Positions 54,733 through 58,740 of a stretch of DNA of 64,000 nucleotides are shown here, one piece after another. Source of the DNA: Amycolatopsis sp. WQ 127309 (GTDB taxonomy: Bacteria; Actinomycetota; Actinomycetes; Mycobacteriales; Pseudonocardiaceae); assembly GCF_023023025.1 (NCBI RefSeq), contig NZ_CP095481.1, positions 4,216,001-4,280,000 of the forward strand. The letters are read 5' to 3'. Each line of letters begins with the position of its first letter. Within the stretch, counting starts at the first letter, position 1. The position numbers and the translations under genes were made by a program. The notes below the pieces were generated by a model. That model was not told where the DNA came from. It did not search any database and saw only the letters and a program-made list of their open reading frames with translations.

Positions 54733-55761
54733 TCAGTGGGTGCGGGTGGTGATCAGGCGGGCCAGGGTGGCGAGTTCGGCGCCGGCGCGCGGGTTCGGGT
54801 TCACCGCGGCCAGGTCGCGGAGGCCCTTGGCCAGCAGCGCCTCGGCCTGGGCCTGGCTCCATTGGCGGCCGCCGGCTTCGTCGACGAGCGTGGCCGCGCG
54901 GGCCAGCGAAGCTTCGTCGAGCGGGTCCGTTCCCGAGTAGAGCTCGGCCAGCTCGGCGCCCGCCGCCGTGCCGGAACACAGGGCCGTCACGACCGGCAGC
55001 GACTTCTTGCGGTTCTGCAGGTCCGAGTACACCGGCTTGCCGGTGACGTCGGGGTCGCCCCAGATGCCGAGCAGGTCGTCGATGTGCTGGAACGCCAGCC
55101 CGATCGAGCGGCCGAACGCGCCCAGCCGCTCGGCGTCCCCGGGCTTCCCCTGCCCCGCCAGCGCCCCGAGCGTGCACGCCGCGCCCAGCAGCGCCGCCGT
55201 CTTGCCCTCCGCCATCCGGACGCACTCGCCCGGGGTGACGTCGTCGCGTTGCTCGAAGCCGAGGTCCGCGGCCTGGCCGTCGAGCAGGTCGAGCACCCCG
55301 GCCGACAGCAGCCGGGTGCTCGCGACGCCGCTCGGCGCGAGCAGCTCGAACGCCAGCGACAGCAACGCGTCCCCGGCGAGCACCGCCGGGCCGGTGCCGA
55401 ACACCGTCCACGCCGTGGCCCGGTGCCGCCGGGTCGTGTCGCCGTCCATGACGTCGTCGTGCAGCAGCGAGAAGTTGTGCACGAGCTCGACCGCGACGGC
55501 GGCGGGGACGGCGTCCGCCGCGTCCCCGCCCACCGCCTCCGCGCACAGCAGCACCAACGCCGGGCGCAGGGCTTTGCCGCCGTCACCCCGCGTCGGCTCG
55601 CCGTTCGCGTCCCACCAGCCGAAGTGGTAACCCGCGATCCGCCGCATCGACTCCGGCAGCCGCTCGGCCGCCGTCCGCGTCGCCGCGTCGACCAGGCTCT
55701 TGCTCCAGGTCAGGACGTCGGAGAGCGGCCGGGCCGCGGTGCGCGTGTCCAAGGTCGTCAT
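54733..55761 (-). CDS. Polyprenyl diphosphate synthase, encapsulin-linked
   Basis: This 342-residue isoprenoid chain-elongation enzyme has the first aspartate-rich motif LLHDDVMDGDTTRR near residue 105, the second QHIDDLLGIWGD near 235, and the GGKALRPALV start. It makes a prenyl diphosphate of uncertain chain length. It overlaps the shell gene (ATGA). Such synthases are known cargo of Family 2B encapsulins, whose targeting sits in a disordered N-terminus; here only about 12 residues precede the fold. Confidence 0.9.
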   Translation of the reverse strand: MTTLDTRTAARPLSDVLTWSKSLVDAATRTAAERLPESMRRIAGYHFGWWDANGEPTRGDGGKALRPALVLLCAEAVGGDAADAVPAAVAVELVHNFSLLHDDVMDGDTTRRHRATAWTVFGTGPAVLAGDALLSLAFELLAPSGVASTRLLSAGVLDLLDGQAADLGFEQRDDVTPGECVRMAEGKTAALLGAACTLGALAGQGKPGDAERLGAFGRSIGLAFQHIDDLLGIWGDPDVTGKPVYSDLQNRKKSLPVVTALCSGTAAGAELAELYSGTDPLDEASLARAATLVDEAGGRQWSQAQAEALLAKGLRDLAAVNPNPRAGAELATLARLITTRTH

Positions 55762-57149
55762 CAGCGCCCGACCTCGACGTCGCCGAGCACGCCGAGCGCG
55801 TCCGGCACCAGCACGGCCGCCGAGTGGTAGGCGCTGACCAGGTACGACGTCACCGCGCGCTCGTTGATGCCCAGGAACCGCACGTTGAGGCCCGGCTGGT
55901 ACTCGTCGGGCAGCGCCGCCGGCCGCAGCCCGATCACGCCGGCGTCGTCCTCGCCCGTGCGCATCGCGATGATCGACGTCGTGCCCGCGTCGGTGACCGG
56001 GATCTTGTCGCTCGGCAGGATCGGCACGCCGCGCCACGCGCTCACGCGCCGGCCGTCGAGGACCGTCGTCGCCGGGTAGAGCCCGCGTGCGGTGCACTCG
56101 CGCCCGAGTGCCGCGATCGCGCGCGGGTGCGCCAGGAAGAACCGGGTCTTGCGGCGGCGGGTGAGCAGCTCGTCCATGTCGTCCGGCGTGGGCGGGCCGC
56201 TGCGGGTGGTGATCCGCTGCTTGAGGTCCGCGCTGTGCAGCAGCCCGAACTCGGTGCTGTTGACCAGCTCGTGCTCCTGCCGTTCCCGCAACGCCTCCAC
56301 GGTGAGCCGCAGCTGCTGATCCAGCTGGTTCATCGGCTGGTTGTAGAGGTCGGTGACGCGGTTGCTGACGCGCAGGATCGTCTGCGCGACGGCGAGGTCG
56401 TACTCCCGCGGCGACGGGTCGTAGTCGACGTAGGTGCCGGCGAGGATCGGCTCGCCGTCGTGGCCGGCGGACAGGTCGATGCTCGCCTCGCCCCGGGCGT
56501 TCTGGGGTTTGCGCTCCCGCCCGGCCATCTCGGCGACGTGCGCGCGCAGCGACTCGGAGCGGCCGTTGAGCCGGGCGTACGCCGCCACCGGGAGGATCAG
56601 CGCGATCACCCGGGTCTTGGCGCGGGCGGTGAACTTCCACGTCGCGTCGTCGCGGGCGAGCAGGTCGGCGCCGAAGTGGTCGCCGTCGGAGGCGGTGCCC
56701 AGCAGCGTCTCGTCGCCGTACTCGCCGCGGCCGTGCTGGGTCACCTTGCCGTGCGCGATCAGCACCAGCGTGTCGAGCGGGTCGCCGGCGGTGGTGATCG
56801 TCGCGCCCGGCTCGTACTCGCGTTGCTCGAAGGCGTCGGCCAGCGCCGACAGCGCCTGCTCGTCGCCGAACCCGTGCAGCAGCTCGAGCTCGGTCAGTTC
56901 CGCGGGCACCACCTGGACGCGGGCGCCGGTGTTGAAGAAGCTGAGCTTGCCGTCGCCGATCGTGTAGGTCAGCCGCCGGTTGACGCGGTAGCTGCCCGCC
57001 GGGACCTCGACCCAGGGCAGCTGCGAGAGCAGCCACCGCGGGGTGATGCCGCGCATCTGCGGGAGCGACTTGGTGGTGGTGCTGAGCGTGCGGGCCGCCT
57101 GGGTGCCGAGCGACAGCTGCGGCGGCGCCGGTTCTTCGGTGACTGTCAA
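55761..57149 (-). CDS. Family 2B encapsulin shell protein (second copy)
   Basis: This 462-residue HK97-fold shell protein has a cNMP-binding-like domain inserted (about residues 75-200; [20 protein letters not shown]) as in Family 2B encapsulins. Conserved shell blocks include [50 protein letters not shown] and [16 protein letters not shown]. The start is TTG overlapping the stop of the small proline-rich gene (TTGA). It is similar to, but clearly diverged from, the first shell gene, so a mixed shell is plausible. Confidence 0.9.
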
Positions 57150-57328
57150 GGTTTCACGCGCCGATCGGGTTCTGGGGCTTCAGGAGGACGGGCGCCCGCG
57201 GGCTTCGGCACGATCCGGGCGGCGGCCGTGCCCAGGCCCGTCGGCCCGAAGGCCGACGGGGGGAGGCCGGAGCCCGGACGCGGGGGCTCCGCGTCCGGCT
57301 TCCGGGGTGGCGTGGCGGGTTCGGGCAT
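57146..57328 (-). CDS. 60-residue proline-rich protein between the two shell genes
   Basis: This small protein is rich in Pro, Ala, Arg and Gly, with no cysteine, aromatic residues but one Phe, and no predicted fold. Its middle reads [17 protein letters not shown]. It overlaps the stop of the first shell gene (ATGA) and the start of the second (TTGA), so it is translated as part of the operon. Family 2 cargo carries disordered Pro/Ala/Gly-rich targeting segments; here the synthase lacks a long one. I infer that this protein is a detached cargo-loading adaptor or a shell accessory. No family is known to me. Confidence 0.55.
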
Positions 57329-58740
57329 CAGCCCTCCCGGCCGATCTCGGCGCTCTCCAGGACGGCGAGCGCGTCCGGCACGAGCACCGCGGCGGAGTAG
57401 TAGGCGCTGACCAGGTAGGAGATGATCGCCTGCTCCGAGACGCCCATGAACCGGACGTTCAGGCCCGGCTGGTACTCGTCGGGCAGCCCGGTCTGGTGCA
57501 GCCCGACGACGCCCTGGGACTGCTCGCCGGTGCGCATCAGCAGGATCGAGCTGGTCCGGGTCTCGGTGACGGGGATCTTGTTGCACGGCAGGATCGGGAT
57601 CCCGCGCCACGCCGGCACCTGGTGCCCGCCCATGTCGACGGCGTCCGGGTAGATCCCGGCCTTGCTGCACTCGCGGCCGAACGCGGCGATCGTCTTCGGG
57701 TGGGCCAGGAAGAACCCGGGGTCCTTCCACACCAGCGAAAGCAGGTCGTCGAGGTCGTCCGGCGTCGGCGGGCCGGTGCGGGTCGGGACGCGCTGGGCGA
57801 AGTCGGCGTTGTGCAGCAGCCCGAAGTCGGTGTTGTTGATCAGCTCGTGTTCCTGGCGCTCCCGCAACGCCTCCACTGTGAGCCGCAGCTGCTGCTCGAT
57901 CTGGTTCATCGGCTGGTTGTAGAGGTCCGCGACGCGGGAGTGCACCCGCAGCACGGTCTGGGCGACGCTCAGCTCGTACTCGCGCGGCGAGCTGTCGTAG
58001 TCGACGAACGTGCCGGGCAGCGCCGGTTCGCCGTCGTGGCCGGCGGAGAGCGTGATCTCCGCTTCACCGTGGTCGTTGCGGGCCGACGCGCCACCGGCGA
58101 CGAAGGCGTCCAGGTGGGCCTGCAGGGTCTCCGACCGGTCCCGCACGTCCTGGAATGCCTGGCGCGGCAGGCTCAGCACGGTGCACCGGGTGACGGCCTT
58201 CGCCGTGAACTCCCAGATCCCGTCGCTGCTGATCAGCGAGCCTTCGCCGAAGTAGTCGCCGTCGGCCATCGTGCCGAGCACCGTCTGGTCGCCGTAGGCG
58301 CCGGTGCCGACCTTGGTGATCTTGCCGTGCGCGATGAGGAAGACGTGGTCGGCCTGGCTGCCGAACTCGACGAGCGCGTCACCCGGCTCGTACTCGTGCT
58401 GGCCGAAGCGGCTCGCCAGCTCGTTGAGGACCTCTTCGTCGTCGTACCCGCGCAGCGGCGCGAGCTCGCCGAGCTCCGGCGGGATCACGCGGACCTCGGC
58501 GCCGGTCGTGGTGAACGTGACCCGCCCGTCGCCCACGGCGTAGCTCAGCCGGCGGTTGACGCGGTAGGCGCCGCCGGAGACCTCGACCCACGGCAGCAGC
58601 TTCAGCAGCCACCGCGACGAGATGCCCTGCATCTGCGGGACGGACTTCGTCGTCGTCGCCAGGGTCCGGGCCGCGGCCCGGCCGAGGCTCAGAGGTGCCT
58701 GTTCCGCGGTCGCGGAGTCCACCGGGTCGGTGACAGTCAC
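57328..58740 (-). CDS. Family 2B encapsulin shell protein (first copy)
   Basis: This 470-residue shell protein has the same HK97-type core and cNMP-like insert ([20 protein letters not shown] near 160) as the second copy. Blocks: [67 protein letters not shown] start at GTG 58740, where the similarity to the second copy (VTVT) begins; the longer frame reads a non-similar leader. It is the first gene of the four-gene operon. Confidence 0.88.

What the first reader, a model, noticed from the sequence alone, without database searches (positions are those of the whole stretch)
54733..58740. Two-shell Family 2B encapsulin operon with a 60-residue proline-rich protein
Two diverged shell genes flank a tiny Pro/Ala-rich gene, all overlapping, and end with a polyprenyl synthase that has almost no N-terminal extension. 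Known Family 2 cargo is loaded through disordered N-terminal segments. A free-standing peptide might do that job here or sit between the two shell types. I know of no description of such a protein.
Basis: partly seen in the sequence, partly recalled or inferred. Interest (0 to 1): 0.85.

Follow-up and report, generated by a model that had tools for sequence, protein, structure and literature searches.

The report
Free-standing docking tag in nanocompartment operon
Between two shell genes of a bacterial protein nanocompartment sits a conserved 60-residue protein that carries, with no enzyme attached, the motif proposed as the docking tag of enzymes packed into such shells, so it likely binds the shell on its own and would bring in a partner that has no tag.

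Summary
On the minus strand Enc1, a 60-codon gene, Enc2 and a polyprenyl synthase overlap end to end. Both shells are Family 2B and show the published Enc1/Enc2 diagnostic motif 1. The new fact: the small protein contains [11 protein letters not shown], the motif (GPTGLGT / GPTGLGTSAAR) proposed in 2021 as the targeting tag of Family 2B terpene cyclases, here without an enzyme. Strong matches occur in 21 of 80 Amycolatopsis genomes searched, directly after Enc1 wherever the contig reaches that far. It evolves as a protein (pN/pS 0.42; shifted frames above 1.5) with two conserved modules (TPPR and the tag) joined by a variable linker. I commit to a shell-docking tether acting in trans, most likely for the synthase; docking is inferred, the partner untested. 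The gene has been lost repeatedly and sometimes stands in cyclase loci without a synthase, which speaks against a strict synthase role. Side finding: the tag resembles the shells' own N-terminal arm (LGxxAAR). New variant of a known kind.

The parts
57328..58740 (-). Enc1, Family 2B encapsulin shell protein (470 aa, GTG start)
   Evidence: frame; PF19307, PF00027; LVWK at diagnostic motif 1 as in S. lydicus Enc1 TVWK (passage)
57146..57328 (-). Small gene, 60 aa, free-standing tag protein (ATG start)
57215..57247 (-). [11 protein letters not shown] core of the small protein (residues 28-38)
   Evidence: published cyclase consensus GPTGLGT / GPTGLGTSAAR (passage)
57302..57313 (-). TPPR module of the small protein (residues 6-9)
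   Evidence: present in 36 of 37 distinct small proteins
57333..57338 (-). GGGAGG, likely ribosome-binding site of the small gene, inside the Enc1 end
   Evidence: in 12 of 18 small-gene loci printed
55761..57149 (-). Enc2, second Family 2B shell protein (462 aa, TTG start)
   Evidence: RRRK at diagnostic motif 1 as in S. lydicus Enc2
54733..55761 (-). Polyprenyl synthase (342 aa) without a long N-terminal extension
58666..58692 (-). Enc1 N-arm stretch LSLGRAAAR that resembles the tag
   Evidence: 307 of 20000 shuffles score as high
57090..57116 (-). Enc2 N-arm stretch LSLGTQAAR that resembles the tag
   Evidence: 90 of 20000 shuffles score as high

Best explanation
The 60-residue protein is a free-standing carrier of the motif (GPTGLGTxAAR) proposed as the shell-targeting tag of Family 2B terpene cyclases, and it likely docks in the mixed Enc1/Enc2 shell in trans and is predicted to hold a partner there, most likely the untagged polyprenyl synthase, through its second conserved module (TPPR). 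Shown: the gene, its overlaps, the motif, its conservation as a protein, two conserved modules joined by a linker of 16-40 residues, and the frequent order Enc1-small-Enc2-synthase. Inferred: that the motif binds the shell (a published proposal for the cyclases), that binding is on the inside, and that the gene arose from a cyclase gene that once lay between Enc1 and Enc2. Untested: which partner the TPPR module binds.
For: Motif identical to the published cyclase consensus. In 22 of 22 strong loci the small gene lies beside Enc1 (20) or at a contig end (2) (in L104 the upstream Enc1 is a fragment). The synthase follows Enc2 in 15 of the 22. pN/pS 0.415, bootstrap 0.32-0.53, against 1.54 and 1.75 in shifted frames; N-terminal module 0.33 and core 0.31, linkers 0.53-0.55. 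TPPR in 36 of 37 distinct proteins with a 16-40 residue linker to the core. AlphaFold2 finds no fold (pTM 0.17), as expected of a disordered tether. 5 of 21 small-gene genomes lack a 2-MIB-synthase-like cyclase, so the gene is not just a cyclase accessory. In G331, G339 and G317, which have two shell loci, the gene is kept in only one, compatible with action in trans.
Against: Synthases look the same with and without the gene: no separating column, no long extension in either group. Within the clade that has the gene, 14 of 24 synthase loci and 4 of 13 cyclase loci carry it: a weak tilt only. In five loci (L092, L098, L104, L105, L107) a cyclase with its own tag stands upstream and no synthase is adjacent. 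The gene has been lost repeatedly (9 changes on the Enc1 tree). No binding was shown here, and the papers that I read in passages only propose that the motif targets.
Confidence: 0.35

Rival explanations
1. A free shell ligand with no cargo of its own: the peptide would occupy tag sites (or N-arm sites) of the shell and so limit cyclase loading, change the pores, or help mixed Enc1/Enc2 shells form.
For: Tag without enzyme, translated between the two shell genes; resemblance of the tag to the shell N-arm; kept beside cyclase loci without a synthase; easily lost; synthase unaffected by its absence.
Against: Does not explain the second conserved module TPPR. 5 of 21 small-gene genomes lack the 2-MIB-synthase-like cyclase that it would compete with, though geosmin synthases were not counted.
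Confidence: 0.3
2. A leftover of a cyclase gene, or a short relay frame that only couples translation of Enc1 to Enc2; the protein itself would do nothing.
For: Same slot as cyclases in Enc1-cyclase-Enc2-synthase operons (passage; L053, L118, L121); overlapping start and stop codons; repeated loss and a likely relic in L108. A cyclase tail with the motif stands as a separate 90-aa protein in Streptomyces sp. R41 (P0102).
Against: Protein-level constraint with an intact core across lengths of 51-87 aa. Operons without the gene couple Enc1 to Enc2 directly, so no relay is needed.
Confidence: 0.12
3. A bridge between the two shell types: the tag would bind one shell protein and the TPPR module the other, favouring mixed shells.
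For: Two conserved modules and a place between the two shell genes.
Against: L092 and L127 have Enc1 and the small gene without Enc2 beside them, though these genomes have Enc2 elsewhere; many two-shell operons lack the gene; the S. lydicus pair co-assembles in E. coli from the two shell genes alone (passages).
Confidence: 0.1

Closest known systems
Family 2B encapsulin-associated terpene cyclases (2-MIB-synthase-like with GPTGLGT; geosmin-synthase-like with GPTGLGTSAAR), PMC8346489
   Same: Same motif in a disordered Pro/Gly/Ala-rich stretch; same operon slot as cyclases in TC/PT operons
   Different: No enzyme domain at all; extra TPPR module; 51-87 aa
[quoted passage not shown]
   Same: Two shells about 60% identical, diagnostic motif 1, synthase after Enc2
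   Different: A 60-residue gene stands between the shells; the passages that I read mention no such gene
Cysteine desulfurase of Family 2A (SrpI/CyD), PMC8049743
   Same: Loading by a disordered N-terminal region, shown there to be necessary and sufficient
   Different: Tag fused to its enzyme, other motifs, Family 2A shell
Family 2B polyprenyl transferases, PMC8346489
   Same: Same enzyme family and neighbourhood
   Different: Described with a 50-100 residue disordered N-terminal domain; the synthase here has none

Membership tests
Family 2B encapsulin shell (Enc1 and Enc2) | SrpI-like HK97-type shell domain with an inserted cyclic-nucleotide-binding domain | tested here: met
   PF19307 and PF00027 in both proteins
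Family 2B encapsulin shell (Enc1 and Enc2) | Two distinct shells, about 60% identical, with diagnostic motif 1 (TVWK in Enc1, RRRK in Enc2) | tested here: met
   61% identity; LVWK and RRRK read against the passage
Family 2B encapsulin shell (Enc1 and Enc2) | Assembles into a shell and encloses cargo | not testable with these tools
   needs expression and electron microscopy
Published TC/PT operon type | Cyclase between Enc1 and Enc2, prenyltransferase after Enc2 | tested here: not met
   The synthase is in place, but the small gene stands where the cyclase would be; the genome's 2-MIB-synthase-like cyclase is unlinked
Family 2B cargo protein with GPTGLGT tag (tested for the small protein) | GPTGLGT / GPTGLGTSAAR-type motif in a disordered region | tested here: met
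   [11 protein letters not shown]; AlphaFold2 pTM 0.17, no secondary structure beyond three residues
Family 2B cargo protein with GPTGLGT tag (tested for the small protein) | Motif fused to an enzyme domain | tested here: not met
   60 aa, no Pfam match
Family 2B cargo protein with GPTGLGT tag (tested for the small protein) | Found inside the shell | not testable with these tools
   needs purification of shells
Family 2B polyprenyl transferase cargo | Polyprenyl synthase domain beside the shell genes | tested here: met
   PF00348, overlaps the Enc2 stop
Family 2B polyprenyl transferase cargo | Disordered N-terminal domain of 50-100 residues | tested here: not met
   Window synthase begins at the Enc2 stop; 51 of 54 shell-linked synthases of the family begin within 102 nt of it

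The most novel reading that the evidence does not exclude
The small protein is the first free-standing cargo adaptor of an encapsulin: a two-headed disordered tether whose tag head docks by mimicking the shell's own N-arm (LGxxAAR) and whose TPPR head brings in an enzyme that has no tag, so that loading is set in trans by a gene between the two shell genes.
Probability: 0.22. Interest if true: 0.82.

Novelty: new variant of a known kind. Interest (0 to 1): 0.6.

Why it matters
Encapsulin loading is described as a tag fused to each cargo enzyme. A conserved tag without an enzyme, translated between two shell genes, would mean that loading or shell composition can be set in trans. It offers a 60-residue reagent for mapping the Family 2B docking site and a direct test of whether polyprenyl synthases without an extension are cargo at all. 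If the tag mimics the shell N-arm, that points to where cargo binds in Family 2B shells.

Tried and rejected
Peptide makes up for the missing synthase extension: rejected as an argument (numbers in the first-reader field).

Synthase extensions elsewhere carry the same tag: not found. In 24 loci of synthase matches from 198 phylum genomes (the own locus not counted) the N-terminal side, up to 120 codons or the previous stop, was printed and none held the motif; 8 of the 24 had a shell gene on the fetched piece.

Free-standing tag outside the genus: profile A2 on 294 family genomes gave strong matches (E 2.5e-13 or better) only in the own genus; the next best is 1e-5, and some weak matches in short frames (L163, L179, L183) were looked at on small pieces and left unresolved. 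The genome-contig scan matched 545 stretches, of which 28 were returned: 9 are Amycolatopsis small genes and 19 lie in cyclase frames; the other 517 were not seen. The protein search with A3 listed 120 of 135 short proteins; I read 20 of them. They include Amycolatopsis small proteins, cyclase tails and three open leads named under Noticed in passing.

Motif by chance: the degenerate GPxGLGT DNA pattern occurs 12 times in the genome and its reversed control also 12 times, so the pattern alone proves nothing; exact GPTGLGT (only one of the 12), position and conservation carry the claim.

N-arm mimicry: kept as an idea. The best match of the tag profile lies in the first 40 residues in 64 of 64 distinct Enc1 and 46 of 63 distinct Enc2, but beats all of 20 own shuffles in only 48 of 64 and 27 of 63. 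Over 20000 shuffles, 12 shells gave 0 to 307 as high. The rows are related and the likeness was noticed first.

Rows dropped: pN/pS used 19 of 22 loci (L099 contig end, L104 damaged locus, L107 near-copy of L095; L127, below the strong cut-off, also left out); in L092, L095 and L098 the script took an ATG one codon upstream. The Enc1 tree used the 66 loci with a near full-length Enc1.

Literature: searches showed no description of such a protein; three papers were read in passages only. bioRxiv and most subscription papers are not held. I recall, but did not see, a separate experimental paper on a 2-MIB synthase encapsulin, which may bear on the docking site.

Full report
What is there. The window is bases 4216001-4280000 of an 11.13 Mb single-contig genome. 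On the minus strand Enc1, a 60-codon gene, Enc2 and a polyprenyl synthase overlap end to end. Both shell proteins match PF19307 and PF00027, the synthase PF00348, the small protein no Pfam family. The closest solved shells are 9bix, 9bhu and 9bje. Enc1 reads LVWK and Enc2 RRRK where the S. lydicus pair reads TVWK and RRRK (passage). The search found two shell matches in the genome, this pair.

The small protein carries a known motif. Its middle reads [16 protein letters not shown]. PMC8346489 (passages) gives GPTGLGT for 2-MIB-synthase-like and GPTGLGTSAAR for geosmin-synthase-like Family 2B cyclases and says that these may function as targeting sequences; I saw no experimental proof. The same genome encodes a geosmin-synthase-like frame (G000:C1:4088962-4090671; TATGLGTSAARI inside, GPTGIGTSSLRI at its end) and an unlinked 2-MIB-synthase-like cyclase (10696484-10697602; AGPSGIGTSAARL near its start).

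Conservation. A database search gave 30 homologues of 53-82 aa. The profile of these and the window protein, in 80 genomes of the genus, gave 22 strong places (E 2.4e-8 or better) in 21 genomes; 76 of the 80 have a Family 2B shell gene. I read all 22 loci. Enc1 lies directly upstream in 20 (a fragment in L104), and L093 and L099 begin at contig ends. Enc2 overlaps the small gene's stop in 16. The synthase follows Enc2 in 15. In five (L092, L098, L104, L105, L107) a 2-MIB-synthase-like cyclase stands upstream, each with its own tag variant, and no synthase is adjacent. A weaker copy in L127 has the order Enc1-small-synthase. Across 37 distinct proteins lengths are 51-87 aa, TPPR is present in 36, and the linker from TPPR to GPTG is 16-40 residues.

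Is it a protein? In 19 of the 22 loci pN/pS is 0.415 (bootstrap over codons 0.32-0.53), against 1.54 and 1.75 in the two shifted frames; the three codon positions differ in 0.20, 0.18 and 0.44 of comparisons. By segment: N-terminal module 0.33, core 0.31, linkers 0.53 and 0.55, last nine residues 0.43; Enc1 0.24 and Enc2 0.35 on 17 rows each. GGGAGG stands just before the small ATG in 12 of 18 loci printed; of eight operons without the gene, four have GGGAGG or GGGAAGG at the Enc1 end, ahead of Enc2. AlphaFold2 on the 31-row alignment gives mean pLDDT 64.7 and pTM 0.17, no fold.

Origin and loss. In L053, L118 and L121 the slot between Enc1 and Enc2 holds a long cyclase frame (762-928 aa) with the motif. 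The L053 cyclase ends in [29 protein letters not shown], a plausible ancestor of the small protein; this is inference. On an Enc1 tree of 66 loci the 19 rows with the small gene lie inside one clade of 38 rows (support 100/98) and need 9 changes. L108, sister of L044 on that tree, keeps ATGCCCGGACCCGCC after the Enc1 stop, in frame with Enc2, a likely relic. One gain and several losses is the simplest account; transfer between loci is not excluded.

What it might do. Two conserved short modules joined by a variable linker suggest a bivalent tether; the tag suggests that one end docks in the shell. I favour the synthase as partner because it follows in 15 of 22 loci, has no tag, and because 5 of the 21 genomes (G302, G304, G332, G336, G349) lack a 2-MIB-synthase-like cyclase. 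Against this: 78 of 80 genomes have a synthase match anyway, so co-occurrence says little; within the clade 14 of 24 synthase loci and 4 of 13 cyclase loci carry the gene (counted); no alignment column has disjoint letters between 15 synthases beside the gene and 11 from genomes without it; and 54 shell-linked synthases lack a long extension with or without the gene (51 of 54 begin within 102 nt of the shell stop). I therefore hold the partner step loosely and give the plain shell-ligand rival nearly the same odds.

Side finding. The tag resembles the shell N-arm. A profile of 28 distinct cyclase tags (small protein excluded) has its best shell match in the first 40 residues in 64 of 64 distinct Enc1 and 46 of 63 distinct Enc2. 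Over 20000 shuffles, as high a score was reached 307 times for the window's Enc1, 90 for its Enc2, 2 and 6 for two Archangium Enc1, 35 and 251 for their Enc2, 0 for L220 (SLGTSAARNL), and 3 to 9 for the five other shells tested. Family 2A shells keep the pattern more loosely (LALGDHAARQL, LALRDVAARQL). PMC12407261 reports an Enc1 N-arm at the two-fold pore that is resolved in some classes only (passages). PMC8049743 puts Family 2A cargo density at the luminal three-fold axis (passage), which does not favour the N-arm site. This stays a hypothesis.

Verdict.

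Noticed in passing
window 58666-58692 and 57090-57116; L198, L207, L220: The shells' N-arm (SLGxAAAR) resembles the cyclase tag (GLGTSAAR), also in Archangium shells; possible docking by N-arm mimicry.
   Followed up: partly
L098/L128 (G331), L129/L130 (G326), L131/L132 (G342), L092/L137 (G339), L135/L136 (G328), L133/L134 (G315), L105/L127 (G301), L101/L139 (G317), L039/L125 (G194), L138/L122 (G312): Genomes with a cyclase-shell locus and a shell-synthase locus: Enc1 copies are 97.5-100% identical in 8 of 9 genomes compared (G312 78.5%), Enc2 copies 93.5-99% in 5 of 5, and most pair by genome in the tree, as if kept alike by gene conversion.
   Followed up: partly
L104 (G239): A cyclase locus where only fragments of both shell genes match, yet the small frame is open; the genome has another Enc1-Enc2-synthase locus (L041).
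   Followed up: no
P0119, P0124, P0102: Short motif-bearing proteins outside Amycolatopsis on longer contigs: Phytohabitans houttuyneae 57 aa, Kitasatospora sp. 77 aa, Streptomyces sp. R41 90 aa (a cyclase tail). Their neighbourhoods were not read.
   Followed up: no
L093, L094, L095, L099, L107, L140, L142-L145: Several draft contigs end at or inside Enc1 or Enc2, as near-identical shell copies would cause; shell and small-gene counts from drafts may be low.
   Followed up: no
G000:C1:10696484-10697602 (outside the window): The genome's 2-MIB-synthase-like cyclase with an N-terminal tag is far from its only shell pair, so it may share this shell.
   Followed up: no
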